From Pseudocercospora fijiensis CIRAD86 (lineage: Eukaryota; Ascomycota; Dothideomycetes; Mycosphaerellales; Mycosphaerellaceae), in NCBI RefSeq assembly GCF_000340215.1, contig NW_006921535.1:2259122-2323121 (forward strand): a stretch of DNA of 64,000 nt, in the 5' to 3' direction. A program made the translations under genes and the position numbers. Below the pieces are notes generated by a model. It made no database searches and was not told the origin of the DNA. It saw nothing but the letters and a program-made list of their open reading frames with translations. Positions 5,248-48,439 of the stretch are shown piece after piece (within the stretch, counting starts at the first letter, position 1; each line of letters starts with the position of its first letter).

Positions 5248-5249
5248 GG

Positions 5250-10708: not shown

Positions 10709-10728
10709 TAGACCCCGCAGTGGTTCGG
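10709..10728 (+). repeat. Terminal inverted repeat, left end of hAT A
   Basis: 20 bp identical to the reverse complement of 20627-20646. Next to it are repeated ggttt/ggtttggtttg steps (about 10729-10790), likely subterminal transposase contacts by analogy with other hATs. Confidence 0.9.
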
Positions 10729-11140
10729 GTTGGTTTGGTTTGGTTTGCTAAGCCGAAACTCTGGTTTGGTTTGGGTTGGTTTGCTAAGCAACTATATAAG
10801 TAGCTAGTTCGAACCATATAATTTATCGGTTTTTAAGAAGTGTACGAATGTATACGTAGCTTCAAGCAAGCCCTTTGTAAGACTCAGCAGTGTGGCCGGT
10901 AGCGTAGCCGGCATTTTTAGTCCTCAGTACTTATAGAATTTTCGAATCCTACTTAGGCTACGTAGTTGTATAAAGGTACTTATATAACCTCAAATCTATA
11001 GACAATCAGCTAAGGGCACTAACCAATTAAAAGCACATATACATATATATAAGGCATTATAGTTCAGTTCGGAAACTGTACTCCTTAGGTATGAATTTTA
11101 TCCTTTCGTTTACGGTTCAATTCCCTAACTGCTTAGTAGA

Positions 11141-11680
11141 ATGTCTTTATCCAGATCTAGGCAGAACTCATCGATTTCCCTAGAAGTCCTCCTCCTTAAG
11201 AAGTTTATACACTTTCCTACCGAACTATTCGATAATATTAAGTACTAGGATGGCTCCTCCCTCGGTATCGGTACAGTATATAAAAGAGCTATAAGGCAGC
11301 TCTATAGAACGTTCCACTAGTCACTCGCTATACTAAGGCCGAATGCTAGTTCGTTCCTTAGAACTCTTAGTTATTTAGGAGATATAAAGGGTGGGGTAGG
11401 TAGTGACTTCGTATTATATAAGGAGGTAGAGGCTGCTATAGAAGAGGCCTTTAACCTATAGAAGATAGTAAAAGATATAGAGGCAGCTGTAGGTCTAGGT
11501 ACCTAGTTGAATTTTTAGTAGGTAGAGTATAAGGATATTCAGAGGGAGTATTAGGTAGAGTTGCGAAGGCAGGTGTATAATATGCTCTAGAAAACAGGGA
11601 TAGTGCCTATAACTATAACTATTAGGCTCTTCAACCTTCCTTATTTTTCCCTGTTTTCTTTTTATAAAAATCTAAACTAA
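11141..11680 (+). pseudogene. hAT cargo ORF1, 179 residues, function unknown (copy A)
   Basis: The ATG at 11141 opens a frame of 180 codons ending in TAA at 11678-11680, with seven or more TAG read as Gln. It begins MSLSRSRQNSSISLEVLLLK and is mostly helical and polar (KEVEAAIEEAFNLQKIVKDI; LRRQVYNMLQ). The end is hydrophobic and aromatic (NLPYFSLFSFYKNLN). No family recognised. It is the only cargo gene on this strand and faces H3a tail to tail, with a GCCGGC cluster between them (about 11735-11780). The same frame is present in copies B and C, so it belongs to the family rather than to copy A alone. Confidence 0.6.
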
Positions 11681-12004
11681 TACAAATCAACCGGAATGTC
11701 TATCTTCTTTTAGTTCTTTGAAAAACCTAGTAGCGTAGCTAGTAGCGTAGCCGGCAGCGTAGCCGGCAGCGTAGCCGGCCTTTTTACTCCTTAGTACTAA
11801 CGGGATTTTGGGAGACTTCTATTCCGTACGGCCAATAAAGCATACTATACTATATATATATGCTTAGAGAGTATTTAGAGCGCGGTATACAGCGCCGTAT
11901 AATAGCGGCTTATTTCGCATATAGAAAAGCTTGCAGATAACACTACGAACATCCTTTCTACTAGAACATCTATCCTACCTAGCACCGTCTCGAATATAGA
12001 CATT

Positions 12005-12704
12005 CTAGCCTTTTAGAATCTAATCGAGTGCTTTGAAATCCTTGTCTATAATCGTTATACGCTTCGCGTAGATAGCTATAAGGTTAACCGCTAAAATAGT
12101 ATTAGTATAGTCCGAAAAGAGGTAGAAGAGAAACATACATTCGAAGATACGAACTAGATAGGCTTCTGCAGCCTCTTAAAGGGCGCCTATCGCGGAGGCT
12201 TAGAAGCGAAGGTCCGTTCTATAATCCTAAGCAATTTCGCGAATAAGTCGTTAGAAAGGAGTTTTACGGATTAGGAGCTAAGAACTCTTCTAATACTGCC
12301 GAATCTTACGGAGGGCTACGGCTAAAGAAGGATTAGTAAAAAGACAGTAAGAATGCCGGCTACGCTGCCGGCTACGCTACCGGCTACGCTGCCGGCTACA
12401 AATAGGACTTACTTCCTAAGCGCTATCGACGCTTCGTACGATTGCTACTAGTAGTAGAAGCGCTAGTTGTCGTCTTACGTAGAGCCTTGCCCGCCGTTGT
12501 CTTGCGCGGAGCCTTACCCGCCGTTATCTTACGCGGAGCCTTGCTCGCGACGCCCTTTCTAGTACCGGAGCTAGCGGTAGCAGCAGCAGCTATCTTACGT
12601 TAATATACTATGCTCGTTCCACTATTTCCGATCTTGTTACGACCCGTAGAAGCAGCAGGTCCCTTCTTACGAGGCGTCGTAACTTAGTTAAGTAGACTCG
12701 CTAT
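12005..12704 (-). pseudogene. Histone H3a, transposon-encoded H3 variant (copy A)
   Basis: Three exons on the minus strand. Exon 1 (12704-12413) is a basic tail, Gly/Ala/Ser/Thr-rich, with three 9-residue units built on GKAPRK or GKALRK (the H3 residues 13-18 motif); the start is probably ATA from ATG. Intron 1 (12412-12322) is GTAAGT...TACTAAT...TTTAG and contains four GCCGGC repeats. Exon 2 (12321-12139) gives GTVALRKIRQYQKS, LLIRKTPFQRLIREIAQDY and RTDLRFQASAIGALQEAAEA. Intron 2 (12138-12091) is 48 nt, GTATGT...TACTAAT...TTTTAG. Exon 3 gives VNLIAIYAKRITIIDKDF and ends ILKG then TAG. Total 186 residues. Loop 1 has ordinary H3 length and FQ is kept, so it looks like an H3 variant, not a CenH3. 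Family identity is firm; any chromatin role is inferred. Confidence 0.92.
12322..12412 (-). other. H3a intron 1 with GCCGGC repeat cluster
   Basis: Donor GTAAGT, branch-like TACTAAT, acceptor TTTAG. Splicing joins KRRQRLG-type tail residues to TVALRKI exactly where canonical H3 reads KPGTVALREI. Four copies of a ~12-bp unit (gccggctacgct) fill its centre. In copy B the donor reads GCAAGT. Confidence 0.85.
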
Positions 12705-13260
12705 TATAAAAGTCGTCGAATTGAGGAAAAAAAGTGCGTTACGAAGGTGTACGAAGGCGCGCGCGGAGCGAGGGTATTACGGAGGTAGTAGATATAGAGC
12801 GTAGAGGTATAGGTATCGATGCGAAGGTTAAATATAGCGGTAGTATCGCGGTGTCGCTAGGCAATAGAGTGAGCTTCGCGCAAGCCTACATTATAGTAAC
12901 GTTAGAGCAAGGAAAGAAGGCAGGCACGGCTAAAAAAGGTAGGTACGGCTAAAAAAGGCAGGTACGGTAGACTTTGAAATATAGCCGGCATATATAGCCG
13001 GCATAGTAATAGGCGAAAGCCTCCTTTTAATGAATAGCCGGCGTAATAATAGTATCCTACTATAGTATAGATATTCTTTAGTAATGCCTTTACTAGCTAT
13101 AGTAATCTTATAAGTAACCTAGGCCTATTGCTAGTAAATATAAGAAATATCAGGTAGGCTATACTAAACAAGCTAGTCATTTAGCAGGAAAAGGCCTACT
13201 ACCGTCTCTATATGCCGGCTACGAGTGCCGGCTACGAGTGCCGGCTATCGCTCTAAATTC

Positions 13261-13971
13261 AACTCCGCCCTATCTCGGAGGCTAAGGTACCGAGCGGAAA
13301 CCCTACAGCTTATATTCACTCGGTTGTCGCGGAGCGCTTATAGGTGAGGTATTAGAAAAGAGTATAAAAAGTACGAGAAGAGTATCCTAGGATATAGGTC
13401 GTAAGTGAATAAGAGTAGTACGCCTAGTTATTTATATAGTACGTTACTCTATACGACTAAGAGCCTATATTATCTCGTGCTTCGCTTATAAGACCTCGAC
13501 TCTACTAATATACTATTATTCTCCTACTCGGTCGCTGTCTCAAATCTTCTTCGAGTTGCCGGACTTAGTGCGCATCTGTAGCTATGTAATAGCGCTACGT
13601 ATTATAGAGAATCAACTCCGCCGTATCTCGAAGGCTAAGGTACCGAGCGGAAATCCTATAGCTTATATTCACTCGGTTGTCGCGGAGCGATTATAGGTGA
13701 GGTATTAGAAAAGAGTATAAAAAGTACGACAAGAGCATCCTAGGATATAGGTCGTAAGTGAATAAGAGTAGCACGCCTAGTTATTTATATAGTACGTTAC
13801 TCTATACGACTAAGAGCCTATATTATCTTGTGCTTCGCTTGTAAGACCTCGACTCTACTAGTATACTATCGATCTCCTCCTCGGTCGCTAATACGCTATC
13901 TCAATTCTTCTTCGAGTTGCCGGACTTAGTGCGCATCTATAGCTATATAATAGCGCTACGCATTATAGAGA
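13261..13971. repeat. Tandem duplication of ~353 bp, only in hAT copy A
   Basis: Unit 1 (13261-13613) and unit 2 (13614-13971) are near identical (aactccgcc...attatagagaat). Copies B and C have one unit. The duplication covers the end of the ORF-C reading, so it arose after the copies separated or was lost from B and C. Confidence 0.9.
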
Positions 13972-14273
13972 ATTTCTCGTTAAAGTTTCTCTCTCGTAGG
14001 CTTGCTATCTACCTCGCAGTATAGAGGATTAAAGTGCTAATGCTAAAGAATCTCCTTATAGTTAGGATACTAGGGCTCCTTAGGACCTTTGTATTTTAGG
14101 TCTAAATAGAGACGTATTATAAACGTTCTATCGCCCTTTCGCTTACTACCCGCTAGGTCGCGATATACGAAGAAACTAATCTGAATGTAGCTCGTCTCTA
14201 TAAGAGCCGGGTGAATATAGAGCGCTAGGTTTCTACTTCGTACCTTAGATTTAAGGACGGCGCGGAGATAAAA
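13262..14273 (-). pseudogene. hAT cargo ORF-C, unidentified, in frame downstream of H3b (copy A)
   Basis: After the H3b TAG (14366-14364) and a TGA (14276-14274) the same minus frame stays open with Gln substitutions for ~1 kb. It reads AVLKSKVRSRNLALYIHPAL, ISFFVYRDLAGSKRKGDR, KYKGPKEPQYPNYKEIL, REILYNAQRYYIAIDAH and RQLEEELRQRISDRGGDR. It has a mixed beta then charged helical look. I do not recognise it. It might be a separate gene, or a C-terminal domain of H3b joined through an intron that would hold the GCCGGC pair at 14284-14305; no clear donor site was found. The 3' part lies in the tandem duplication of copy A. Confidence 0.45.
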
Positions 14274-14363
14274 TCAGAAATATAGCCGGTACCTGTAGCC
14301 GGCAAAAGGATGCGAAAATGGGCCTCCTCCTAGGTTAATCTAACGACTAAATACAATTTCCAA

Positions 14364-14987
14364 CTAACCCGCTATAAACCGACGCCGAATTTTAGCTAGA
14401 AGCTGTATATCTTTATTTTAAAGAGTAACCCGCTTCGCATAGATAGCAAGGAGGTTTAAAAGCTTAAGCTCGGTTACGAGAAATGCCTCCGTAGCTTCCT
14501 AAAGAGCACTAATCGCCTTAGCCGTAAATCGCATACTAGACCGAAAATCTAATGTAATTTCTCGGACGAGTCGCTAGAAGGGAGTCTTAGGGATTAAAAG
14601 CTCGGTCCCTCTTTTGTTTTAGAAAAGCCGGATCTAGCGAAGGGCAATAGTACCTAGTTTAAAGCGCCGCTTCTTTGTCGTCGAGTCCTACCTTGTTCCC
14701 TTTCTTTTAATAGAAAGATAACTTTTCTTCGCGACAGTCTTCGTCCGCCTACTCTTTTTAGCCTTCTCCTATCTACCTATAGCCTTCTTGTTTTTCGGTA
14801 CTGTTTTCCGAGGAACCCCCTTCCTTCGTATATACTACGGAGAGCCTTACTCTTCCGATATCTCGTTCTCGCTACGGTCTCCCTATACTTAGCTTACTTT
14901 ACCCTTGCCCTTTAGCCTCTAAAGATATTTATCTGCGCGTTCAGGCGACGAGGGTATATCGGTAGGACCTAGAAAATTAATAAGCAT
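14364..14987 (-). pseudogene. Histone H3b, second transposon-encoded H3 with long basic tail (copy A)
   Basis: Opens at ATG 14987 (MLINFLGPTDIPSSPERADK) and runs 207 codons to TAG 14366-14364, no intron. The first ~110 residues are a Lys/Arg-rich tail (RRKGVPRKTVPKNKK; AKKSRRTKTVAKKSYLSIKR). The histone fold follows: RRFKLGTIALRQIRLFQNK, LLIPKTPFQRLVREITLDF, SSMRFTAKAISALQEATEAF, LLAIYAKRVTLQNKDIQLLA. These align with H3 alpha-N through alpha-3 without a loop-1 insertion. It is only distantly similar to H3a, so the two are separate paralogues. The tail (~110 residues against ~45 in core H3) is its odd feature. The 5' end faces the transposase 3' end across a GCCGGC pair (15293-15316). Dead through RIP. 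Confidence 0.9.
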
Positions 14988-16663
14988 ATAATCGTAGGGA
15001 GACATTAATACTTCTTACCTTCTAGAACAAATAGTCTTCTATTAAACCGCCTTATTGGGTTATCGTTAGATTCGAATAAAGGATAGTAGCTTAAGGAAGG
15101 GGAGGCAGCCGGCTTAGGAAGGCCCGAAGAGCCGAATCCTTAAGGCATATTTGTCTTTAAGAATATAGGGAAAGGGAAGAAGGAGAGGAAGAGCGAACAG
15201 AGAATTAGAAATAGTCCGTAGGTAAGCGGGGTCGGTTGCTATAGCAACTAGTCTGTTTAGGTCCTAGGAATTCGAAACACATTTCGGACATATGCCGGCT
15301 ATATACGCCGGCTATATTACCTTGTACGTAAACGCTTCGTCTCCTTAAAGCTGCTCTAAGCCTATATACGTTTCCGCTTCTCGACCCGGTATCGCCTTCT
15401 ACCTCCGCCCTCCTCCTCTTCGTTATCGCTAATTAGGGTTTCGCTTAGACTAAATTTCGTATTCTCTTCGCGCTCCTAGGTTTCTTCGATCTTAAGGTTT
15501 TCTAATTCCTCGATTAACTCCTTTAGTATAATCTTTAGTAATCTACCTTAGCGATTCTAGTAGAGGAGATAGTATCGGAATACTATAATAGATTCGAAGG
15601 TAGTAGGCGAGTATGTTCGATTAAAGCGGCCCTAGTAACGAGCGATACTAAAAGACCTCTTATAGCCTATACCTACGCTTAGGATAGCGAGGACGTCCCG
15701 AGCGACCGACGCCATCGTTAGAAACTTAGGCTCTAACCGCTGCTATATAGCGAGAATATCGTCTCCGAATTCGTCTAGAAGACCGGTAAGATCTAGAGAT
15801 TATTAGCCCTCTTTCCGAGCCTACGGGTTTGTACTTACTCGCGCGCCGATAGAGATCGAACTCTTCCTTATTTACTTTAGTAGTTGCTTCCTCTTCTGCC
15901 TCTACTTCCTACCTACGAAACAGGTATAATGTCGGAGCCTTCTAAACCTTCTTTTTCTTTATAGGAGCTGCATTTGGACTAGTTTCTTTCCGACGCTCGT
16001 AGAACATCTTTTCTAGAATAGTCTAGTAATGCTTCGGCTATACCTCGTCCGCCTTCCATTCCGGCCTCTACTAGTATATATCCTTTTCTACCGGGTTAAG
16101 CAAGTACGCAACGCTATAGATATCCCCGAACGAGTCAAAGGTAGCCTATAATATTTATGCAACTTAGCATAGGAGGTGTCTATAGCTTTCGTTATAGCTA
16201 CTTTCTAGGGAACGCTCTTCTTAGCTAGCTTAGCTGCGGTTTCCTCGAGCTCGTTAAAGAGCTAGTTATAGTACGTAAAGACAAGGTAGATCGTCGGTCC
16301 TCGGGTTCTTCCAATCGTAGCAGTAACCTTCGCGTAATGCTTACCAATATCGACGAGATACTCTGCTTAGCGCTATTCGGCGGCGGTAAGGCCGAGCTAC
16401 TTAATATCCTCGGAACTCTAATAGATCTCGAGAGCGGTACGTAAAGTACATCCCCTCGTAACTATATAGAAAGTCGAATCGAACCGGGTCTTAACGTCTT
16501 AGGTAAAACGGAGTGGGCGCTAAGGAGGCCGCTTTTGCTATCGCTTATTCTATGCGATATTCTAGGCATCGGTTTTAGGGCGCTCGATCAGGTTCTTTTA
16601 AATAGCCTCGAATCGGTTACATCTCTATAAGCTCGAGTTCGTATATATTGCTAGACGACGAAG

Positions 16664-16732
16664 CTAGAGAAAAAGAGTTAGAACTATACTAGGTTACCGG
16701 CTATAGGTGCCGGCTACGGACAAAAGTTATAC
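16664..16732 (-). other. Transposase intron with GCCGGC pair
   Basis: 69 nt, GTATAA...TTCTAACTC...CTCTAG. Holds two repeat units in its first half. Flanking exons read ESLALVLY and QLRRLVIYTN-type transposase sequence. Confidence 0.7.
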
Positions 16733-17687
16733 CTTATATAAAACGAGAGCGAGGCTCTCTGCCTTATCCCGTCTTATTGCTGTAATAAGTTTCTCGACTT
16801 TCGACTTTGCTTTATCCTTATCTAGGATCTTCTATTAGTCGTCGTTTAATAGTGCAATTTTAAGCGTCTTAAAGAGGGCTCGGATCGCGATTTGAACTAT
16901 ATAAGCGAGGCAGGGAAACTTCTATAGGGATGTAACTAGCAACGACGTCGGCTCCGATTCAATAGGGCTAGGGCTATTAATAGGCTCCTCTTTATCGTTA
17001 TTATCGTACGTATTGTCGTACGTATCCGGAATCGTAGCGAGCTTAACATTCGGAAGATTAAGCTAGATTGTAGACCTTGTAATCTCCTTTACGCACTCGA
17101 CCCTATCGATACAATTAGTAATTTTAAAGATATATGCGAGTGAATTGTATATACAACGCCTTATATAATGTTCGATTATTACTAGCGTTGTCCGCAGTAA
17201 TCGAGATTAGTTTCGTTGTTACGCTAACCCTGTCTATTGCCGTATAGACAAGCTTCGCTATATCCTTACTAGTATAGGAACCTAGAATTTTAGGGAATCC
17301 GATCATAAGTTCCTAGAGTTTCTAATCCGAATTGATAAAGTATAGCATAATCGAGAGGAAGGAGGCTCTTATAGTCCGGCTTGACTAGCTATCGATAGCA
17401 ATAGCTACTCGGCGAGTATTACGGAGGATCTCCCGAATATCGTCTAACGCAGCCTCTTTGTTCTTTTCGAACATAACACGCTAGGTTGTCGCGCCGAGAA
17501 ATAGGGGAGGGTAGTTTGTAAGATATAGGTATGTCTTCTATATAGACTCCCTTTCGTAGAAGTCTTCCGGAAGACCGTTTATAGCTAGCATTTCGTTTGC
17601 TAGTTACTTAAAGTCTTCGGGGGAGAAATCGGTAGCCTTCAATCCTAGAGCTTCCTTAAGCGTAGCCTATAATAATTAGCTAGATCT

Positions 17688-17766
17688 CTACGGTTGATTT
17701 AGGTAGCCGGAATCTATAGCCGGTAGCTATAGCCGGCAGCTATAGCCGGCATTTTAGAAGACATAC
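17688..17766 (-). other. Transposase intron with four GCCGGC units
   Basis: 79 nt, GTATGT...CTAAATCAAC...CCGTAG. Four near-identical ~12-bp units occupy most of the intron. Removing it joins DIDTAFQKE to RSSQLLQATLKEALGLK in frame. Confidence 0.75.
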
Positions 17767-18537
17767 CTCTTTCTAGAACGCTGTATCTATATCAACTCTC
17801 CTCTCTCCTTAAGATTCCCGATACCGTTTAGAATAGAGATAGTTCGTAGGCGATAAGTTCCTATCCCCTAGTTTCGGGTATTTCAAGATTAAACCGTAGA
17901 AGTTGTAGACAATTACTAGTTAACCTTTGAGTCGAGAAGTCGTATAACGGTGTAATGCCCCCTCTATAAAGAACTTCTAGAATGTGTCCGTTCGCTCCTT
18001 ACTCCCCTATCGCATCGAGTACTTCCGGAGTTTATACTCCTTCAAACGTAAGTATAAAGGGAACTATATCTTATAGACCTATTAATTGAACTGCTCTATA
18101 TACTCGGGTTTCTAAAGATACGCCTAGCTAGCCTTTTCGAAGATTTCCGGGTTAATACTCGATGTTCTTATATCTCCGAACAACCTTCTGCTTAGACTCC
18201 GTAAAGGTAAGGACTAGGTAGTAGTACCCTGTAATGAATTCCTACTACTAGGATTCGGAGAGGATGAATCTAGCCCTAATCGTCGTCTAGGACTCGATAG
18301 GCTCGAAGGTAAGTATGCGACCTCCTCTCGACGTTGTCGCAATCTCGCTCGTATACTAGACTATTTCGACTGTCGTCTCGTTGTTACCCTTCCTAGTATA
18401 GCGCCTAGTATATAGACAATGTCGGTCGGCATGTTTTGAGGTTTCGTACGGTAAGGTAAGGACTTAGGAGTAGTAGATGTGTACTAGTAGCTATAGAGAA
18501 ACACCCTTTCTTTTATAGCATCGTATCGTTAGGAACA

Positions 18538-18658
18538 GCTAGGTAGTAAATAGCTAGCTACCTTTTTTTTTTGTTTCCTAGCCACCTAACTACTAGATTT
18601 TTTTTCCTAGCTACCCTAGCTAGCCTAACTACTAGAATTTCTTTCCTAGCTACCCTAA
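18538..18658. repeat. ctagctaccc direct repeats after ORF-B
   Basis: Short units of cctagctacc(ctagctag)cctaactactag with T-runs (tttttttttt) lie just past the ORF-B stop. The same block is at 34570-34690 in copy B and 44690-44815 in copy C. It fills the spacer between ORF-B and the transposase. Confidence 0.7.
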
Positions 18659-19096
18659 CTACCTGAATTTTGCCTTCTATACGGCGGCTCTCTCCTACTA
18701 ACGGAACCGAGCTACTGTACCTAACGAATCTAAGCTCGTTTTTAGTCTCAATCCATCCTCTTTCGGTATAAGATACTCGATAAGCAAATGCTTAGGCCGA
18801 GTCTGACTACGAAACCTAAGACTAACTAATAGCTCTATTAACCAATCCTAATCCTCGAACTCCTTCCGCTTCTTAGTAAAGACCTTAAAGAGCGCTCGAG
18901 CTTCTTCGGGTACCTACGGAGTAGTCGAGATAAAGCCGTATCGCTAAAATAGGTAATCCTTCGGAGGCTTATATAGAGATTTAGAGAATTCCAACGCCAA
19001 CCCATCCTACTAGCAGCTTAGATTCCGGATATAAGCCCTCTCTGCCTTAGTAAAGATTTCATATAGCAGTAGCACTCTGCCTTCGAGAAACGCTTT

Positions 19097-19162
19097 CTGT
19101 TTAACTGTTAGTATCTGCCGGCTACGAACGCCGGCTACATATACCGAGCATAGAATAATTAC
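19097..19162 (-). other. ORF-B intron 2 with GCCGGC pair
   Basis: 66 nt with GTAATT donor and AACAG acceptor; contains gccggctacgaacgccggct. The same intron in copy B is 34071-34136 in opposite orientation. Confidence 0.7.
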
Positions 19163-19643
19163 CTGTACCCCTTCCTCCTACAGTAACACTTCTGCCGTCC
19201 CTAGATACCTAGCCCCGATCGCATTAATCGTAAGCCACTTTGCCTTTATAGACGTAAAGGCTTCGCTCTAATACTAATAAAGAAACTTCTACTCTATATT
19301 AAGGATATAAAGACGACTAGTCTCGATTCTAATCCTTATTAGCTTTTCGTAGTAGCTTTAACTATAATTTTCTAGATTGATAGGACTTATGCCTTAGCCC
19401 TTTACTAGTATCTCGTCTCTTTAACTGTGCTCGATCCACTCCTAGCGCTTATCGTCTATAGCGTTAGGCCCTAAGACTGCACCTATTACTAGATCGACGT
19501 ATAGTATCTCCTCGCTTTTTTCAGTTCCTTTATTCGTAGCATTAAGCTCTATCGTAGTATCCTAAACTCTAGCATTATTGTTCTCGGCTATCTGAATATC
19601 TCCGTTACTATCGGTCGTATCGATAGAGGTAGCGACTACAGGT

Positions 19644-19750
19644 CTAAATGCTATTAGTTAACGTGTTAAAGAAAAATATGCCGGCTATAGCTGCCGGCTA
19701 CGGCTGCCGGCTATAGCTACTAGCTACGGCCGCTAGCTAGATTAACTTAC
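19644..19750 (-). other. ORF-B intron 1 with GCCGGC cluster
   Basis: 107 nt, the longest intron seen in the element, with at least three GCCGGC units and two degenerate ones (gctagctacggccgctagct). Confidence 0.75.
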
Positions 19751-20204
19751 GCTACTAGAACTTCACGCTCGAAAACTAGCCGCAATTCTTTCCTCTTCTT
19801 AGCCTTCTCTTAAGTTGTCTTCTTATTCTAACCTTTACTTTTTTCTATAGGCGCTAGCTATCGATAGAATGCCTTATTCCGCGCCTTTCTTCTCTTATCC
19901 TTAGCTCTTTTATCCTTATCTATCTTGTCCTTTCTCTCGCGGTCTCGTACGGAATTCTTCTTCGTAGAGTACTCCTCTTTAGTCTTACGCTTTTTAGTTA
20001 GACGCTTAAGCAAAACAAACTCGCGGTCTTCAGTTCTATCTTCTGTTTAGCGCGCGGCGCGCTTCTCTCTTACTATTGTAAGGGAAAGGGGCGGGGGCGC
20101 AGCGTATAGTAGTTATTGTCGGTATAGGTATAGAGGAAGAAGTTGAAAGTATAAGAATGTCGCGAAGCCCTAATTGTTGCCGCCTACGTAACGTTATATA
20201 GGTA

Positions 20205-20485
20205 AGCTTTCGCAACTACGGCAACTACGCCCCGGCAATAGCAACTACGCCCTAGCAACGGCAACTACGCCCTAGCAACGGCAACTACGCCCTAGCAACG
20301 GTAATAAAGCGTAGTAAATACAACTTAGTAACTATTATAGCCGGCAATCGTAGCCGGCAGTCGAATAAGAGTGTCCTTGTAGCAAAACTACGCCCTAGTA
20401 ACGGCAACTACGCCCTAGCAACGGCAAAAGAGCGTAGTAAATGTAACAGAGTTACTATTATAGCCGGCAATCGTAGCCGGCAGTC
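20205..20485. repeat. Right subterminal tandem repeats of hAT A
   Basis: Repeats of about 20 bp, gcaactacgccctagcaacg, form two blocks (about 20209-20300 and 20392-20425). Each is followed by ttactattatagccggcaatcg and a tcgaataagagtgtccttg segment, so a ~120-bp higher-order unit is duplicated. Present inverted at 32730-33010 in copy B and at 46370-46680 in copy C. Probably transposase-binding subterminal repeats. Confidence 0.8.
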
Positions 20486-20626
20486 GAATAAGAGTGTCCT
20501 TGTAGTAAAACTAATACAGTCTCTAGTTCAAACTAGGAATCTATATAGTTCGAAAAAACCAAACCGGAACTAGGGAGCTGGTTCGCCGCCAAGAAACCAA
20601 ACTATATACGTTTGGTGGTTCGGAAA

Positions 20627-20646
20627 CCGAACCACTGCGGGGTCTA
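20627..20646 (-). repeat. Terminal inverted repeat, right end of hAT A
   Basis: ccgaaccactgcggggtcta, exact inverse of the left end, followed by the duplication acttgtcc (20647-20654). Confidence 0.95.
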
Positions 20647-32562: not shown

Positions 32563-32729
32563 CTAACCCCGCAGTAGTTCGGTTTCCGAACTACTAAACG
32601 TATATAGTTTAGTTTCTTAGCGGCGAACTAGCTCCCTAGTTCCGGTTTGGTTTTTTCGAACTATATAGATTCCTAGTTTGAACTAGAGACTATATTGGTT
32701 TTACTATAAGGATACTCTTATTCGACTGC

Positions 32730-33010
32730 CGGCTACGATTGCCGGCTATAATAGTAACTCTGTTACATTTACTACGCTCTTTTGCTGTTACTAGGGCGTA
32801 GTTGCCGTTACTAGGGCGTAGTTGCTATTACTAGGGCGTAGTTTTGCTATAAGGACACTCTTATTCGACTGCCGGCTACGATTGCCGGCTATAATAGTTA
32901 CTAGGTTGTATTTACTACGCTTTATTACCGTTACTAGGGCGTAGTTGCCGTTGCTAGGGCGTAGTTACCGTTGCTAGGGCGTAGTTGCTGTTGCCGGGGC
33001 GTAGTTGCTA
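32730..33010. repeat. Subterminal tandem repeats of hAT B
   Basis: Reverse complement of 20205-20485: units cgttgctagggcgtagttgc in two blocks separated by GCCGGC pairs. Confidence 0.8.
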
Positions 33011-33177
33011 TAGTTACGAAAGCTTACCTATATAACGTTACGTAGGCGGTAACAATTAGGGCTTCGCGATATTCTTATACTTTTAACTTCTTCCTCTATA
33101 TCTATACCGATAATAACTACTATACGCTGCGCCCCCGCCCCTTTCCCTTATAATAGTAAGAGAGAAGCGCGCCGCGT

Positions 33178-34570
33178 ACTAAACAGAAGATAGAACTAAA
33201 GACCGCGAGTTTGTTTTGCCTAAGCGTCTAACTAAAAAGCGTAAGACTAAAAAGGAGTACTCTACGAAGAAGAATTCCGTACGAGACCGCGAGAGAAAGG
33301 ACAAGATAGATAAGGATAAAAGAGCTAAGGATAAGAGAAGAAAGGCGCGGAATAAGGTATTCTATCGATAGCTAGCGCCTATAGAAAAAAGTGAAGGTTA
33401 GAATAAGAAGACAACCTAAGAGAAGGCTAAGAGGAGGAAAGAATTGCGGCTAGTTTTCGAGCGTAAAGTTCTAGTAGCGTAAGTTAATCTAGCTAGCGGC
33501 CGTAGCTAGTAGCTATAGCCGGTAGCCGTAGCCGGTAGCTATAGCCGGCATATTTTTCTTTAATACGTTAACTAATAGCATTTAGACCTATAGCCGCTAC
33601 CTCTATCGATACGACCGATAGTAACGGAGATGTTTAGATAGCCGAGAACAACAATACTAGAGTTTAGGATACCGCGATAGAGCTTAATACTACGAATAAA
33701 GGAACTAAAAAAAGCGAGGAGATACTATACGTCGATCTAGTAATAGGTATAGTCTTAGGGCCTAACGCTATAGACGATAAGCGCTAGGAGTAGATCGAGT
33801 ATAGTTAAAGAGACGAGATACTAGTAAAGGGCTAAGGTATAAGTCCTATCAATCTAGAAAATCATAGTTAAAGCTACTACGAAAAGCTAGCAAGGATTGG
33901 AATCGAGACTAGTCGTCTTTATATCCTCGATATAGAGTAGAAGTTTCTTTATTAGTATTAGAGCGAAGCCTTTGCGTCTATAAAGGCAAAGTAGCTTACG
34001 ATTAATGCGATCGGGGCTAGGTATCTAGGGACGGCAGAAGTGTTACTATAGGAGGAAGGGGTATAGGTAATTATTCTATACTCGGCATATATAGCCGGCG
34101 TTCGTAGCCGGCAGATACTAACAGTTAAATAGAAAGCGTTTCTCGAAGGCAGAGTACTACTACTATATAAAATCTTTACTAAGGCAGAGAGGGCTTATAT
34201 CCGGAATCTAAGCTGCTAGTAGGATAGGTTAGCGTTAGAATTCTCTAAATCTCTATATAAGCCTCCGAAGGATTACCTATTTTAGCGATACGGCTTTATC
34301 TCGACTACTCCGCAGGTATCCGAAGAAGCTCGAGCGCTCTTTAAGGTCTTTACTAAGAAGCGGAAGGAGTTCGAGGATTAGGATTAGTTAATAGAGCTAT
34401 TAGTTAGTCTTAGGTTTCGTAGTTAGACTCGGCCTAAGCATTTGCTTATCGAGTATCTTATACCGAAAGAGGATAGATTAAGACTAAAAACGAGCTTAGA
34501 TTCGTTAGGTATAGTAGCTCGGTTCCGTTAGTAGGAGAGAGCCGCCGTATAGAAGGCAAAATTTAGGTAG
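33178..34570 (+). pseudogene. hAT cargo ORF-B (copy B)
   Basis: Same three-exon layout as in copy A: Lys-rich exon 1, GCCGGC-containing introns (about 33478-33584 and 34071-34136), and exon 3 ending KAKFRQLG with TAG 34568-34570. The start is not resolved. Because this copy reads on the plus strand it is the easiest place to inspect the intron signals (gtaagttaatct ... gttaactaatagcatttag). Function unknown. Confidence 0.6.
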
Positions 34571-37250
34571 TTAGGGTAGCTAGGAAAGAAATTCTAGTAG
34601 TTAGGCTAGCTAGGGTAGCTAGGAAAAAAAATCTAGTAGTTAGGTAGCTAGGAAACAAAAAAAAAAGGTAGCTAGCTATTTACTACCTAGCTGTTCCTAA
34701 CGATACGATACTATAAAAGAAAGGGTGTTTCTCTATAGCTACTAGTATACATCTACTACTCCTAAGTCCTTACCTTACCGTACGAAACCTTAAAACATAC
34801 CGACCGATATTGTATATATACTAGGCGCTATACTAGGAAGGGTAATAACGAGACGACAGTCGAAACAGTCTAGTATACGAGCGAGATTGCGACAACGTCG
34901 AGAGGAGGTCGTATACTTACCTTCGAGCCTATTGAGTCCTAGACTACGATTAGGGCTAGATTTATCCTCTCCGAATCCTAGTAGTAGGAATTCATTATAG
35001 GGTACTACTACCTAGTCCTTACCTTTACGGAGTCTAAGCAGAAGGTTATTCGGAGATATAAGAACATCGAGTATTAACCCGGAAATCTTCGAAAAGGCTA
35101 GCTAGGCGTATCTTTAGAAACCCGAGTATATAGAGCAGTTCAATTAATAGGTCTATAAGATATAGTTCCCTTTATACTTACGTTCGAAGGAGTATAAACT
35201 CCGGAAGTACTCGATGCGATAGGGGAGTAAGGAGCGAACGGATACATTCTAGAAGTTCTTTATAGAGGGGGCATTATACCGTTATACGACTTCTCGACTT
35301 AAAGGTTAACTAGTAATTGTCTACAACTTCTACGGTTTAATCTTAAAATACCCGAAACTAGGGGATAGGAACTTATCGCCTACGAACTATCTCTATTCTA
35401 AACGGTGTCGGGAATCTTAAGGAGAGAGGAGAGTTAATATAGATATAGCGTTCTAGAAAGAGGTATATCTTCTAAAATACCGGCTATAGCTGCCGGCTAT
35501 AGCTACCGGCTATAGATTCCGGCTACCTAAATCAACCGTAGAGATCTAGCTAATTATTATAGGCTACGCTTAAGGAAGCTCTAGGATTAAAGGCTACCGA
35601 TTTCTCCCCCGAAGACTTTAAGCAACTAGCAAACGAAATACTAGCTATAAACGGTCTTCCGGAAGACTTCTACGAAAGGGAGTCTATATAGAAGATATAC
35701 CTATATCTTATAAACTACCCTCCCCTATTTCTCGGCGCGATAACCTAGCGTATTATATTCGAAAAGAATAAAGAGGCTACGTTAGACGATATTCGGGAGA
35801 TCCTCTATAATACTCGCCGAGTAGCTATTACTATCGATAGCTAGTTAAGCCGGACTATAAGAGCCTCCTTCCTCTCGATTATACTATACTTTATCAATTC
35901 GGATTAGAAACTCTAGGAACTTATAATCGGATTCCCTAAAATTCTAGGTTCCTATACTAGTAAGGATATAGCGAAGCTTGTCTATACGGCAATAGATAGG
36001 GTTAGCGTAATAACGAAACTAATCTCGATTACTGCGGACAACGCTAGTAATAATCGAATATTGTATAAGGCGTTGTATATATAATTTACTCGTATATGTC
36101 TTTAAAATTACTAATTGTATCGATAGGGTCGAGTACGTAGAGGAGATTACAAGGTCTATAATCTAGCTTAATCTTCCGAATATTAAGCTCGCTACGATTC
36201 CGGATACGTACGATAATACGTACGATAATAACGATAAAGAGGAGCCTATTAATAGCCCTAGCCTTATTAAATCGGAGCCGACGTCGTTGCTAGTTACATC
36301 CCTATAGAAGTTTCCCTACCTCGCTTATATAGTTCAAATCGCGATCTAAGCCCTCTTTAAGACGCTTAAAATTGCACTATTAAACGACGACTAATAGAAG
36401 ATCCTAAATAAGGATAAAGTAAAGTCGAAAGTCGAGAAACTTATTATAGCAATAAGACGGGATAAGGCAGAGAGCCTCGCTCTCGTTTTGTATAAGGTAT
36501 AACTTTTGTCCGTAGCCGGCACCTATAGCCGGCAACCTAGTATAGTTCTAACTCTTTTTCTCTAGCTTCGTCGTCTAGTAATATATACGAACTCGAGCTT
36601 ATAGAGATATAACCGATTCGAGGCTATTTAAAAGAACCTAATCGAGCGCCCTAAAACCGATGCCTAGAATATCGTATAGAATAAGCGATAGTAAAAGCGG
36701 CCTCCTTAGCGCCTACTCCGTTTTACCTAAGACGTTAAGACCCGGTTCGATTCGACTTTCTATATAGTTACGAGGGGATATACTTTACGTACCGCTCTCG
36801 AGATCTATTAGAGTTCCGAGGGTATTAAGTAGCTCGGCCTTACCGCCGCCGAATAGCGCTAAGTAGAGTATCTCGTCGATATTAGTAAGTATTACGCGAA
36901 GGTTACTGCTACGATTAGAAGAACCCGAGGACCGACGATCTACCTTATCTTTACGTACTATAACTAGCTCTTTAACGAGCTCGAGGAAACCGTAGCTAAG
37001 CTAGCTAAGAAGAGCGTTCCCTAGAAAGTAGCTATAACGAAAGCTATAGATACCTCCTATACTAAGTTGTATAAATATTATAGTGCTACCTTTAACTCGT
37101 TCGGGGATATCTATAGCGTTACGTGCTTGCTTAACCCGGTAGAAAAGGATATATACTAGCAGAGGCCGGAATAGAAGGCGGACGAGGTATAGCCGAAGCA
37201 TTACTAGACTATTCTAGAAAAGATGTTCTACGAGCGTCGGAAAGAAACTA

Positions 37251-37258
37251 GTCCAAAT
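37251..37258. repeat. 8-bp target duplication of hAT copy C (left)
   Basis: gtccaaat here and gtctaaat at 46824-46831, one C-to-T difference. The empty site in copy A (reverse complement of ctgcatttggactag near 15970) confirms gtccaaat as the original. Confidence 0.93.
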
Positions 37259-37690
37259 TAGACCCCGTAGTAGTTCGGGTTAGTTTAGTTTAGTTTGCTA
37301 AGCCGAAACTCTAGTTTGGTTTAGGTTAGTTTGCTAAGCAACTATATAAGTAGCTAGTTCGAACTATATAATTTATCGGTTTTTAAGAAGTATACGAATG
37401 TATACGTAGCTTTAAGCAAGCCCTTTGTAAGACTTAGCAGTATAGCCGGCAGCGTAGCCGGCATTTTTAGTCCTTAGTACTTATAGAATTTTCGAATCCT
37501 ACTTAGGCTACGTAGTTATATAAAGGTACTTATATAACCTCAAATCTATAGACAATTAGCTAAGGGCACTAACTAATTGAAAGCATATATACATATATAT
37601 AAGGCATTATAGTTTAGTTCGGAAACTGCACTCCTTAGGTATAAATTTTATCCTTTCGTTTACGGTTCAATTCCCTAACTGCTTAGCAGA

Positions 37691-38230
37691 ATATCTTTAT
37701 CTAGATTTAGGTAGAACTTATCGATTTCCCTAGAAGTCCTCCTCCTTAAGAAGTTTATACACTTTCCTACCGAACTATTCGATAATATTAAGTACTAGGA
37801 TAGCTCCTCCCTCGGTATCGGCATAGTATATAAAAGAGCTATAAGGTAGCTCTATAGAACGTTCTACTAGTTACTCGCTATACTAAGGCCGAATACTAGT
37901 TCGTTCCTTAGAACTCTTAGTTATTTAGGAGATATAAAGGGTAGGGCAGGTAGTAACTTCGTATTATATAAGGAGGTAGAGGCTGCTATAGAAGAGGCCT
38001 TTAACCTATAGAAGATAGTAAAAGATATAGAGGCAGCTGTAGGTCTAGGTACCTAGTTGAATTTTTAGTAGGTAGAGTATAAGGATATTTAGAGGGAGTA
38101 TTAGGTAGAGTTGCGAAGGCAGGTATATAATATGCTCTAGAAAATAGGGATAGTGCCTATAACTATAACTATTAGGCTCTTCAACCTTCCTTATTTTTCC
38201 CTATTTTCTTTTTATAAAAATCTAAACTAA
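37691..38230 (+). pseudogene. hAT cargo ORF1 (copy C)
   Basis: 180-codon frame as in copy A; the ATG has become ATA at 37691. More TAG/TAA than copy A (for example AGATCTAGGCAGAAC is now agatttaggtagaac). Function unknown. Confidence 0.55.
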
Positions 38231-38554
38231 TACAAATTAACCGGAATGTCTATCTTCTTTTAGTTCTTTAAAAAACCTAGCAGCGTAGCTAGTAGCGTAG
38301 CCGGCAGCGTAGCCGGCAGCGTAGCCGGCCTTTTTACTCCTTAGTACTAACGGGATTTTAGGAGACTTCTATTCCGTATAGCCAATAAAGTATACTGTAC
38401 TATATATATATGCTTAGAGAGTATTTAGAGCGCGGTATATAGCGCCGTATAATAGCGGCTTATTTCGTATATAGAAAAGCTTGCAGATAATACTACGAAT
38501 ATCCTTTCTACTAGAACATCTATCCTACCTAGCACCGTCTCGAATATAGACATT

Positions 38555-39227
38555 CTAGCCTTTTAGAATCTAATCGAGTGCTTTGAAATCCTTATCTATA
38601 ATCGTTATACGCTTCGCGTAGATAGCTATAAAGTTAACCGCTAAAATAGTATTAGTATAGTCCGAAAAGAGGTAGAAGAGAAACATATATTCGAAGATAC
38701 GAACTAGGTAGGCTTCTATAGCCTCTTAAAGGGCGCCTATCGCGGAGGCTTAGAAGCGAAGGTCCGTTCTATAATCCTAGGCAATTTCGCGAATAAGTCG
38801 TTAGAAAGGAGTTTTGCGGATTAGGAGCTAAGAACTCTTCTAATACTGCCGAATCTTACGGAGGGCTACGGCTAAAGAAGGATTAGTAAAAAGACAGTAA
38901 GAATACCGGCTACGCTACCGGCTACGCTACCGGCTACGCTACCGGCTATAAATAGGACTTACTTCCTAGGCGCTATCGACGCTTCGTACGATTACTACTA
39001 GTAGTAGAAGCGCTAGTTATTGTCTTACGTAGAGCCTTGCCCGCCGTTGTCTTACGCGGAGCCTTACTCGCGACGCCCTTTCTAGTACCGGAGCTAGCGG
39101 TAGTAGCAGTAGCCCTCTTACGTTAATATACTATACTCGTTCTACTATTTCCGGTCTTATTACGACCCGTAGAAGTACTAGGTCCCTTCTTGCGAGGCGT
39201 CGTAACTTAGTTAAGTAGACTCGCTAT
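38555..39227 (-). pseudogene. Histone H3a (copy C)
   Basis: Same exons and introns as copy A; intron 2 is at 38641-38688. The tail has two GKAPRK-type units instead of three (27 bp shorter), predicting 177 residues. The candidate start (39227) reads ATA, and the codon before it is ACA here against ATA in copy A. Fold residues match H3a of copy A, with extra stops. Confidence 0.9.
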
Positions 39228-39767
39228 TGTAAAAGTCGTCGAATTAAGGAAAAAAGTGCGTTACGAAGGTATACGAAGGCGCGCGCGGAGCGAGGGTATT
39301 ACGGAGGTAGTAGATATAGAGCGTAGAGGTATAGGTATCGATACGAAGGTTGAATATAGCGGTAGTATCGCGGTATCGCTAGGTAATAGAGTAAGCTTCG
39401 CGTAAGCCTATATTATAGTAACGTTAGAGCAAGGAAAGAAGGTAGGTACGGCTAAAAAAGGTAGGTACGGCTAAAAAAGGCAGGTACGGGAGACTTTAAA
39501 ATATAGCCGGTATATATAGCCGGCATAGTAATAGGCGAAAGCCTCCTTTTAATAAATAGCCGGCGTAATAATAGTATCTTACTATAGTATAGATATTCTT
39601 TAGTAATGCCTTTACTAGCTATAGTAATCTTATAAGTAACCTAGGCCTATTGCTAGTAAATATAAGAAATATCAGGTAGGCTATACTAAACAAGCTAGTT
39701 ATTTAGTAGGAAAAGGCCTACTACCGTCTCTATATACCGGCTACGAGTGCCGGCTATCGCTCTAAAT

Positions 39768-40430
39768 TCAACTCCGCCCTATCTTAGAGGCTAAGGTACC
39801 GAGCGGAAACCCTATAGCTTATATTTACTCGGTTGTCGCGGAGCGCTTATAGGTAAGGTATTAGAAAAGAGTATAAAAAGTACGAGAAGAGTATCCTAGG
39901 ATATAGGTCGTAAGTAAATAAGAGTAGTACGCCTAGTTATTTATATAGTACGTTACTCTATACGACTAAGAGCCTATATTATCTTATACTTCGCTTATAA
40001 GACCTCGACTCTACTAGTATACTATCGATCTCTTCCTCGGTCGCTAATACGCTATCTTAATTCTTCTTCGAGTTGCCGGACTTAGTACGCATCTATAGCT
40101 ATATAATAGCGCTACGTATTATAGAGAATTTCTCGTTAAAGTTTCTCTCTCGTAGGCTTACTATCTGCCTCGTAGTATAGAGGATTAAAGTACTAATACT
40201 AAAGAATCTCCTTATAGTTAGGATGCTAGGGCTCCTTAAGACCTTTGTATTTTAGGTCTAAATAGAGACGTATTATAAACGTTCTATCGCCCTTTCGCTT
40301 ACTACCCGCTAGGTCGCGATATACGAAGAAACTAATCTAAATATAGCTCGTCTCTATAATAGCCGGGTAAATATAGAGCGCTAGGTTTCTACTTCGTACC
40401 TTAGATTTAGGGACGGCGCGGAGATAAAAT
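39768..40430 (-). pseudogene. hAT cargo ORF-C (copy C), single-unit version
   Basis: Same minus frame after H3b as in copy A, with one copy of the segment that is tandemly duplicated there. Reads KSKVRSRNLALYI and RDLAGSKRKGDR. Unidentified. Confidence 0.45.
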
Positions 40431-40519
40431 TAGAAATGTAGCCGGTACCTATAGCCGGCAAAAGGATGCGAAAATAGGCCTCCTCCTAGGTTAATCTAAC
40501 GACTAAATACAATTTCTAA

Positions 40520-41143
40520 CTAATCCGCTATAAACCGACGCCGAATTTTAGCTAGAAGCTATATATCTTTATTTTAAAGAGTAACCCGCTTCGTATAGAT
40601 AGTAAGGAGGTTTAAAAGCTTAAGCTCGGTTACGAGAAATGCCTCCGTAGCTTCCTAAAGAGCACTAATCGCCTTAGCCGTAAATCGTATACTAGACCGA
40701 AAATCTAATATAATTTCTCGGACGAGTCGCTAGAAGGGAGTCTTAGGGATTAAAAGCTCGGTCCCTCTTTTATTTTAGAAAAGCCGGATCTAGCGAAGGG
40801 TAATAGTATCTAGTTTAAAGCGCCGCTTCTTTATCGTCGAGTCCTACCTTATTCCCTTTTTTTTAATAGAAAGATAACTTTTCTTCGCGATAGTCTTCGT
40901 CCGCCTACTCTTTTTAGCCTTCTCCTATCTACCTATAGCCTTCTTATTTTTTAGTACTATTTTCTGAGGAACCCCCTTCCTTCGTATATACTATAGAGAG
41001 CCTTACTCTTCCGATATCTCGTTCTCGCTATAGTCTCCCTATATTTAGCTTGCTTTACCCTTACCCTTTAGCCTCTAAAGATATTTATCTACGCGTTTAG
41101 GCGACGAGGGTATATCGGTAGGACCTAGAAAATTAATAAGCAT
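40520..41143 (-). pseudogene. Histone H3b (copy C)
   Basis: ATG retained at 41143; TAG 40522-40520; 624 nt, the same length as in A and B. It keeps the long basic tail and the H3 fold (ALRQIR, PFQRLVREI, ALQEATEAF, IYAKRVTL). An identical length in three copies argues that this reading is the true gene. Confidence 0.88.
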
Positions 41144-41472
41144 ATAATCGTAAGGAGACATTAATGCTTCTTACCTTCTAGAATAAATAGTCTTCTATTA
41201 AACCGCCTTATTAGGTTATCGTTAGATTCGAATAAAGGATAGTAGCTTAAGGAAGGGGAGGCAGCCGGCTTAAGAAGGCCCGAAGAGCCGAATCCTTAAG
41301 GTATATTTGTCTTTAAGAATATAGGGAAAGGGAAGAAGGAGAGGAAGAGCGAATAGAGAATTAGAAATAGTCCGTAGATAAGCGGGGTCGGTTGCTATAG
41401 CAACTAGTCTATTTAGGTCCTAGGAATTCGAAACACATTTCGGATATATACCGGCTATATACGCCGGCTATA

Positions 41473-44400: not shown

Positions 44401-44589
44401 ACTACTAGGATTCGGAGAGGATAAATCTAGCCCTAATCGTAGTCTAGGACTCGATAGGCTCGAAGGTAAGTATACGACCTCCTCTCGACGTTGTCGCAAT
44501 CTCGCTCGTATACTAGACTGTTTCGACTGTCGTCTCGTTATTACCCTTCCTAGTATAGCGCCTAGTATATATACAATGTCGGTCGGTAT
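41473..44589 (-). pseudogene. hAT transposase relic (copy C)
   Basis: Start ATA (44589) in place of ATG; TAA at 41475-41473. Uninterrupted, with the same introns and catalytic blocks as copy A. More stop codons than copy A. Confidence 0.88.
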
Positions 44590-44815
44590 GTTTTAAGGTT
44601 TCGTACGGTAAGGTAAGGACTTAGGAGTAGTAGATATATACTAGTAGCTATAGAGAAACACCCTTTCTTTTATAGCATCGTATCGTTAGGAATAGCTAGG
44701 CAGTAAATAGCTAGCTACCTTTTTTTTTTGTTTCCTAGCTACCTAACTACTAGATTTTTTTTCCTAGCTACCCTAGCTAGCCTAACTACTAGAATTTCTT
44801 TCCTAGCTACCCTAA

Positions 44816-46205: not shown

Positions 46206-46369
46206 AGCGCGCGGCGCGCTTCTCTCTTACTATTGTAAGGGAAAGGGGCGGGGGCGTAGCGTATAGTAGTTATTATCGGTATAGGTATAGAAGAAGAAGT
46301 TGAAAGTATAAGAATATCGCGAAGCCCTAATTATTGCCGCCTACGTAACGTTATATAGGTAAGCTTTCG

Positions 46370-46680
46370 CAACTACGGCAACTACGCCCCGGCAATAGCA
46401 ACTACGCCCTAGTAACGGCAACTACGCCCTAGCAACGGCAACTACGCCCTAGCAACGGTAATAAAGCGTAGTAAATACAACCTAGTAACTATTATAGCTA
46501 GCAATCGTAGCCGGCAGTCGAATAAGAGTGTCCTTATAGCAAAACTACGCCCTAGTAACGGTAACTACGCCCTAGTAACGGCAACTACGCCCTAGCAACG
46601 GCAAAAGAGCGTAGTAAATGTAATAGAGTTACTATTATAGCCGGCAATCGTAGCCGGCAGTCGAATAAGAGTGTCCTTAT
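46370..46680. repeat. Subterminal tandem repeats of hAT C
   Basis: ggcaactacgccctagcaac units in two blocks; the second block has one unit more than in copy A. Confidence 0.8.
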
Positions 46681-47815: not shown

Positions 47816-48439
47816 ATACTTATTAATTTTCTAGGTCCTACCGATATACCCTCGTCGCCTAAACGCGTAGATAAATATCTTTAGAGGCTAAAGGGTAAAG
47901 GTAAAGCAAGCTAAGTATAGGGAGACCGTAGCGAGAACGAGATATCGGAAGAGTAAGGCTCTCCGTAGTATATACGAAGGAAGGGGGTTCCTTAGAAAAT
48001 AGTACCGAAAAACAAGAAGGCTATAGGTAGATAGGAGAAGGCTAAAAAGAGTAGGCGGACGAAGACTATCGCGAAGAAAAGTTATTTTTCTATTAAAAGA
48101 AAGGGAACAAGGTAGGACTCGACGATAAAGAAGCGGCGCTTTAAACTAGGTACTATTACCCTTCGCTAGATCCGGCTTTTTTAAAACAAAAGAGGGACCG
48201 AGCTTTTAATCCCTAAGACTCCCTTCTAGCGACTCGTCCGAGAAATTACATTAGATTTTCGGTCTAGTATACGATTTACGGCTAAGGCGATTAGTACTCT
48301 TTAGGAAGCTACGGAGGCATTTCTCGTAACCGAGCTTAAGCTTTTAAACCTCCTTACTATCTATACGAAGCGGGTTACTCTTTAAAATAAAGATATATAG
48401 CTTCTAGCTAAAATTCGGCGTCGGTTTATAGCGGATTAG
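47816..48439 (+). pseudogene. Histone H3b (copy B)
   Basis: Start reads ATA (47816-47818) where A and C keep ATG; TAG at 48437-48439; 624 nt. Plus-strand, so readable directly: cgctttaaactaggtactat gives RFKLGTI, followed by PFQRLVREI. Same tail and fold as in copy A. Confidence 0.88.

What the first reader, a model, noticed from the sequence alone, without database searches (positions are those of the whole stretch)
12005..14987. A hAT transposon family that carries two different histone H3 genes
Between its terminal repeats, hAT copy A encodes two H3 proteins on the same strand as the transposase. H3a has the spliced fold GTVALRKIRQYQKS / PFQRLIREIAQDY / DLRFQASAIGALQEA. H3b has GTIALRQIR / PFQRLVREITLDF / ALQEATEAF / IYAKRVTL. 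Both recur at the same relative place in copies B and C, so they are part of the element, not a later capture. The two are diverged from each other and from core H3, have long modified tails, ordinary loop 1 length and the conserved FQ, so neither looks like CenH3. I know of no described hAT with histone cargo. Inference: element-made H3 could mark or loosen chromatin on its own copies, or resist host silencing.
Basis: partly seen in the sequence, partly recalled or inferred. Interest (0 to 1): 0.96.

Follow-up and report, generated by a model that had tools for sequence, protein, structure and literature searches.

The report
Transposon carrying two histone H3 genes
Three broken copies of a DNA transposon, of a kind already described from a banana-disease fungus, each carry two histone H3-like genes that were likely working genes of the transposon before the host's mutation defence broke them, so it would be a rare case of a mobile element with its own histones.

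Summary
In detail: the window holds three RIP-mutated hAT copies (A 10709-20646; B nested inside C), each with two histone H3-like genes on one strand in one order. In 22 of 22 further loci of the same genome, picked for H3b, H3a is present too.

The novelty claim fails. Dhillon et al. 2019 (PMC6710886) describe an element with the same features in Pseudocercospora fijiensis (784 H3-like copies; 'one or two' per element), and Manning et al. 2013 (PMC3538342) another H3-carrying hAT in Pyrenophora.

Three results go beyond or against the parts of those papers that I saw. (1) The published '16-amino-acid insertion' is, by sequence, a 48-nt spliceosomal intron, and H3a has a second intron one codon from a host H3 intron; so H3a does not look like an intronless retrocopy. 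(2) The H3 pair predates the split of the element's subfamilies, and coding indels kept the frame (0 of 5) where non-coding ones did not (21 of 24): maintained genes rather than passengers. (3) H3b has an unbroken relative elsewhere.

That the element histones blunted H3K9-methylation silencing is my preferred mechanism; it is untested.

The parts
10709..20646 (-). hAT copy A, 9,938 bp, TIR TAGACCCCGCAGTGGTTCGG; coding strand minus
   Evidence: TIRs; 8-bp target duplication ACTTGTCC on both sides
37259..46823 (-). hAT copy B, 9,565 bp, inserted into copy C
   Evidence: target duplication GTCCAAAT/GTCTAAAT, 7 of 8
32563..37258 (+). hAT copy C, first part, left of the nested copy B
   Evidence: imperfect TIR, found only with 3 mismatches allowed; ATCGTAGC/ATCGTAGG, 7 of 8
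46824..51700 (+). hAT copy C, second part, right of the nested copy B
12413..12704 (-). H3a exon 1 in copy A: N-terminal tail with repeated GKAPRK-like modules (start codon inferred)
12322..12412 (-). H3a intron 1, 91 nt, GTAAGT ... ACTAAT ... TTTAG; one codon downstream of, and in the same phase as, the second intron of the host H3 gene
12139..12321 (-). H3a exon 2: alphaN to alpha2 of the histone fold
   Evidence: E 1.7e-21
12091..12138 (-). H3a intron 2, 48 nt, GTATGT ... ACTAAT ... TTTTAG; very likely the '16 AA insertion' of PMC6710886
   Evidence: paper text
12005..12090 (-). H3a exon 3: end of the histone fold (IYAKR), 3' end uncertain
14364..15005 (-). H3b of copy A: long basic tail, histone fold with 2-residue insertion in alphaN; no intron seen
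   Evidence: (E 2e-24)
38690..38869 (-). H3a exon 2 in copy B
40541..40843 (-). H3b core in copy B
48116..48418 (+). H3b core in copy C
50090..50269 (+). H3a exon 2 in copy C
15446..15946 (-). probable C-terminal part of the hAT transposase (dimerisation region), decayed
   Evidence: Dimer_Tnp_hAT PF05699 below cut-off: E 0.042 here, 0.011 in L010, 0.0068 in L028, 0.011 in L032

Best explanation
The window holds three RIP-broken copies of a hAT transposon, matching one already published from Pseudocercospora fijiensis, that carries two histone H3-like genes, and these were likely expressed genes of the element that would have helped it by placing K9-altered H3 in chromatin and so weakening H3K9-methylation silencing. 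Shown by sequence: TIRs, 8-bp target duplications, two H3 genes per copy in fixed order, two intron-like sequences in H3a, a pair older than the subfamily split, frame-keeping coding indels, tails without the exact canonical K4 and K9/K27 motifs. Inferred: splicing, expression, selection on function, deposition in nucleosomes, and the anti-silencing benefit. The proposed working: H3a and H3b were made from the element in an active lineage, competed with host H3, and blunted H3K9 methylation in a semi-dominant way, as an ectopic K9-substituted H3 does in Neurospora; in the end RIP, which acts on repeats, still mutated the copies.
For: Cargo, not later capture: H3a and H3b on the same strand and in the same order in A, B, C and in 22 of 22 further 9.5-10-kb loci picked for H3b, including diverged subfamilies L010/L015-L018 and L013/L014. 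Introns: intron 1 has GTAAGT in 23 of 25 copies and TTAG directly before the exon in 24 of 25; intron 2 ends CTAAT...TTTTAG in 25 of 25; without them H3a is a gap-free H3. Frame kept between subfamilies: indels not a multiple of 3 are 0 of 5 coding against 21 of 24 non-coding (A v L010, Fisher p 0.0005), 0 of 4 against 12 of 15 (A v L014, p 0.009), 1 of 6 against 22 of 24 (A v L018, p 0.0008). Third-position excess of transversions, which RIP cannot make, in H3a exon 3: 10 of 14 (p 0.004). H3b has an unbroken relative, P0003, with the same 2-residue insertion and AK.RRRF end. Tails: no ARTKQT or ARKS in 24 readable H3a tails or 25 H3b tails. [quoted passage not shown]). H3 transcripts from the Pyrenophora H3-hAT are reported (PMC3538342 passages).
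Against: No stop-free H3a or H3b was seen: of 150 scored histone matches the only two without stops are host genes, and all 150 scored matches to P0003 have stops (lists capped). H3a exon 2 changes as fast as non-coding DNA (transversions 19 of 183, spread 6/7/6 over codon positions), so it shows no purifying selection. The H3b core is slower than non-coding DNA only weakly (11 of 286 v 95 of 1449, p 0.10; 5 of 291 v 59 of 1366, p 0.043). Copy L018 has a frameshift in the H3b tail. The 5' splice site of intron 2 reads GT in only 8 of 25 copies; the other 17 read AT. H3a keeps an RK..AGKAPRK stretch that aligns with K9-K18 and RKST occurs in three tails (L010, L015, L017), so K9 methylation of H3a is not excluded. 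No expression data. Dhillon et al. read the H3s as passive, RIP-killed retrocopies.
Confidence: 0.45

Rival explanations
1. Passive transduplication (the published reading): a host H3 transcript was captured by chance, was copied along with the hAT element and never did anything for it.
For: The host H3 with two introns is intact on contig 6 and the element copies seen are RIP-broken. PMC6710886 argues for an intronless retrocopy captured about 100 million years ago. H3a exon 2 shows no purifying selection by transversions.
Against: Two intron-like sequences in H3a; frame-keeping indels between subfamilies; both genes in 25 of 25 elements looked at; H3b shares an insertion and C-terminus with an unbroken outside relative.
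Confidence: 0.35
2. The element H3s help transposition itself, not silencing escape: the variants make open or unstable nucleosomes at element ends or at targets.
For: H3b has an altered alphaN (2-residue insertion); alphaN and loop 1 of H3a differ strongly between subfamilies; an 8-mer TAGCCGGC is repeated 28 times in copy A and absent outside the elements in the window, so an element-specific DNA tag exists.
Against: No link between the 8-mer and H3 was tested; no structure of a nucleosome with these H3s; the H3b model is confident only over the histone fold.
Confidence: 0.12
3. They are centromeric H3 (CenH3) variants captured by the element.
For: CenH3s also have long, divergent tails; profile searches with H3b list many proteins named CenH3.
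Against: The tree puts H3a and H3b apart from the host CenH3; H3a and H3b have loop 1 of ordinary H3 length; the H3b match to solved structures is best to H3.3C and other ordinary H3s among 60 shown of 176.
Confidence: 0.04

Closest known systems
H3-carrying hAT family of Pseudocercospora fijiensis and relatives (Dhillon et al. 2019, PMC6710886)
   Same: hAT, 9.5-9.9 kb, 20-bp TIR, 8-bp target duplication, one or two H3-like copies, CpA-to-TpA RIP, hundreds of copies, intact three-exon host H3 on scaffold 6 (contig C6 here). Almost certainly the same element family in the same species; the tools give the genome no name.
   Different: There: intronless retrocopy, second copy with a 16-aa insertion, dimerisation domain not found, no subfamilies. 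Here: the 16 aa is a 48-nt intron, a second intron lies near the host position, the H3 pair predates the subfamilies, and a weak dimerisation domain is seen.
H3L-carrying hAT of Pyrenophora tritici-repentis (Manning et al. 2013, PMC3538342)
   Same: hAT with an H3-like cargo gene between TIRs; a tail unlike typical fungal H3 is reported
   Different: 5.6-kb and 2.3-kb forms, one H3L per element, 26 nearly identical copies, ESTs present; the 2019 paper finds no similarity between the two elements
Host canonical H3 (G000:C6, locus L001)
   Same: Same histone fold; an intron one codon away from H3a intron 1, same phase
   Different: H3b 50% and H3a (L012) 60% identical over aligned parts; long altered tails; H3b has a 2-residue alphaN insertion
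P0003, unnamed 164-aa H3-like protein from a sequencing-run assembly (source lgn)
   Same: 2-residue alphaN insertion, NLLAI, AKRVTL and AK.RRRF end shared with H3b; scores H3b (122 bits) above the host H3 (105 bits)
   Different: Unbroken; loop 1 three residues longer; only a 1,189-bp contig, so no element can be seen; tree grouping weak (70/91)

Membership tests
hAT superfamily | 8-bp target site duplication | tested here: met
   A 8 of 8, B 7 of 8, C 7 of 8 identical
hAT superfamily | short terminal inverted repeats | tested here: met
   20-bp TIR at both ends of A and B; C has one imperfect end; 418 + 408 ends in the genome with up to 1 mismatch, 0 for the reversed control pattern
hAT superfamily | transposase with hAT dimerisation domain | tested here: inconclusive
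   Dimer_Tnp_hAT below its cut-off in 4 of 4 copies tried (E 0.0068-0.042); a chance family in another frame scored E 0.0005; DUF659, reported in PMC6710886, did not appear in the 8 frames scanned
Histone H3 | histone profile above curated cut-off | tested here: met
   86.6 and 77.2 bits against 26.4; 176 solved-structure sequences matched, best Histone H3.3C E 5.1e-29
Histone H3 | histone fold in a structure model | tested here: met
   H3b model: pLDDT block means 78-95 over residues 151-200, whole model only 60.6, pTM 0.32; the 50 listed Foldseek rows are H3/nucleosome chains, E from 9.3e-06, but TM-scores low (TMq 0.22-0.23)
Canonical (replication) H3 | tail with ARTKQT and ARKS | tested here: not met
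   0 of 24 H3a tails and 0 of 25 H3b tails
CenH3 | groups with host CenH3 | tested here: not met
   31-row tree
H3-hAT family of Dhillon et al. 2019 | 9.5-9.9 kb, TIR, 8-bp duplication, two H3-like copies, RIP bias, host H3 with three exons on unit 6 | tested here: met
   lengths 9,938 and 9,565 bp; CpA o/e 0.26, TpA 1.71; host H3 on C6; paper text
H3-hAT family of Dhillon et al. 2019 | intronless H3 copies (as published) | tested here: not met
   H3a has two GT-AG intron-like stretches; H3b has none seen; not confirmed by RNA

The most novel reading that the evidence does not exclude
A DNA transposon lineage owned two histone H3 variants as working genes: an intron-bearing H3a with multiplied K14/K18-type tail modules and a fast-changing alphaN/loop 1, and an H3b with a rebuilt alphaN and no canonical methylation sites. 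It kept both through subfamily radiation and used them to stop the host from marking its copies with H3K9 methylation, an anti-silencing arm of a mobile element made of histones.
Probability: 0.35. Interest if true: 0.85.

Novelty: already known. Interest (0 to 1): 0.5.

Why it matters
Histone capture by a hAT has been read as an accident that RIP cleaned up. Introns, frame-keeping indels and a conserved two-gene design suggest instead that the element's histones were functional. If so, here is a mobile element that attacked chromatin silencing from inside the nucleosome, in a group of fungi where H3K9 methylation and RIP are central. The question can be tested with intact H3s from other fungi in a laboratory Neurospora strain.

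Tried and rejected
CenH3 reading: rejected by tree and loop length. Alternative genetic code as the source of the stops: rejected, because the dinucleotide bias (CpA 0.26, TpA 1.71) runs through the window, the host H3 reads normally and copies differ in which stops they carry. Single origin of H3a and H3b: left open, one-clade test p 0.55. The stop-codon test of selection was dropped, since RIP can make any TAA or TAG. The second profile search (A2) was swamped by plant and animal H3/CenH3 and brought no relative nearer than P0003; the H3a search gave ordinary H3-like proteins only among the 120 listed. In one search my host CDS was one base off and its printed translation is wrong; the host protein was checked. 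In one search the L017 H3b row is out of register and was not used. Only 3 of the 22 fetched element loci (L010, L014, L018) were put into the indel and transversion comparison; L010 and L018 are near relatives, so the three comparisons are not independent. In the L018 comparison 1 of 6 coding indels breaks the frame.

Full report
What is there. The window lies on contig C4 of a 73.9-Mb, 30-contig genome with strong RIP marks (CpA observed/expected 0.26, TpA 1.71). It holds three copies of one hAT element. A is complete (10709-20646). B (37259-46823) sits inside C (32563-37258 and 46824-51700). The target duplications are 8 bp: identical for A, 7 of 8 for B and for C. Across the genome the TIR pattern is found 418 times forward and 408 times in reverse with up to one mismatch; the reversed control pattern is found 0 times. 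A histone profile gives 772 first-look candidates, of which 150 were scored and all 150 match.

Two H3 genes. H3b (14364-15005, minus) and H3a (about 12704-12005, minus) score 86.6 and 77.2 bits against PF00125, cut-off 26.4. They recur in B and C and in 22 of 22 further loci that I fetched for their H3b match, always in the same order and on one strand. These include diverged subfamilies, typified by L010/L015/L016/L017/L018 and by L013/L014. The pair is thus older than the subfamilies.

Introns. H3a becomes an ungapped H3 only if two GT-AG stretches are removed: 12412-12322 (91 nt) and 12138-12091 (48 nt). Intron 1 has GTAAGT in 23 of 25 copies (one GCAAGT, one not found) and TTAG directly before the exon in 24 of 25. 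Intron 2 ends CTAAT...TTTTAG in 25 of 25; its first two bases are GT in 8 and AT in 17, a RIP-type change. Intron 1 lies one codon downstream of the second intron of the host H3, in the same phase. Dhillon et al. report that the second H3 copy has an insertion of 16 amino acids and conclude that an intronless transcript was captured. The 48-nt stretch is 16 codons long and sits in H3a only, so I take it for that insertion; its splice and branch signals, and the perfect alignment without it, make it an intron by sequence. RNA would be needed to prove splicing.

Were the genes maintained? RIP makes only transitions, so I used indels and transversions. Copy A was compared with L010, L014 and L018 (3 of the 22 loci). 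Indels not a multiple of three: coding 0 of 5, non-coding 21 of 24 (L010); 0 of 4 and 12 of 15 (L014); 1 of 6 and 22 of 24 (L018, a frameshift in the H3b tail). H3a exon 3 has 10 of 14 transversions at third positions (p 0.004). The other signals are weaker or absent: H3b core transversions are 11 of 286 against 95 of 1449 non-coding (p 0.10) and 5 of 291 against 59 of 1366 (p 0.043), and H3a exon 2 shows none (19 of 183, evenly over codon positions). Its alphaN and loop-1 stretches differ strongly between subfamilies, which fits relaxed or diversifying change; the data do not separate the two.

Relatives. H3a and H3b each form a supported clade (100/99) in a 31-row tree, apart from the host H3 and CenH3; a common origin of the two is neither shown nor rejected (p 0.55). 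P0003, a 164-aa unbroken protein from a 1,189-bp contig of an unnamed sequencing run, shares H3b's 2-residue alphaN insertion and C-terminal end and scores higher to H3b (122 bits) than to the host H3 (105 bits). Searching the genome with it lists 150 matches, all with stops inside, and the host H3 is not among them (150 of 755 candidates scored). It is grouped with H3b only weakly (70/91).

Tails. None of 24 readable H3a tails and none of 25 H3b tails holds ARTKQT or ARKS. H3a carries 1-3 GKAPRK-like modules, the K14-K18 stretch, in the 24 readable tails. Against a simple 'no K9' story, part of the H3a tail aligns with host residues 9-18, and three subfamily copies contain RKST.

Mechanism. 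I commit to this: the element's H3s were expressed, entered chromatin, and by their tails diluted or blocked H3K9 methylation on and around the element. [quoted passage not shown]). Expression, deposition and benefit are inferred. The main rival is the published passive reading; the H3a exon 2 result and the lack of a stop-free copy in the lists I saw are on its side.

Known or new. Manning et al. (PMC3538342, passages) had a first H3-hAT in Pyrenophora with ESTs. Paper searches brought no other original report of H3-carrying hATs; a 2021 review (PMC8616336) was seen in a listing only. The intron reading, the age of the pair relative to subfamilies and the frame test were not in the parts I read.

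Noticed in passing
window, inside copies A, B, C (e.g. 11748-11772, 12355-12391, 13214-13240, 17730-17743, 19680-19706): 8-mer TAGCCGGC/GCCGGCTA: 68 times in the three copies (29,076 nt), 0 times in the other 34,924 nt of the window; 28 in copy A against 0.75 on average in 100 first-order shuffles. It lies in H3a intron 1 as 12-nt units and in gaps; no listed position falls in the H3a or H3b exons of copy A. Possible transposase-binding tag.
   Followed up: partly
G000:C1:8853279-8853651; L015 2318-2700; L017 5395-5766: MITE-like pairs of the same TIR only about 370-385 bp apart, some inserted in full elements.
   Followed up: no
H3a exon 1, window 12413-12704 and loci L010-L034: Copies differ in the number of GKAPRK-like tail modules (1-3 in 24 readable tails), with in-frame length changes.
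   Followed up: partly
P0107 (protein named from Cudoniella acicularis, 351 aa): Long H3-like protein whose end resembles H3b (FLVATLE..., VTLQAKD, LLERLR); weakly grouped with H3b.
   Followed up: no
window 4610-10700: Retrotransposon-like reverse transcriptase/integrase reading with many stops to the left of copy A (seen by eye).
   Followed up: no
window 27189-27732: Three tandem 136-bp units, 89% alike.
   Followed up: no
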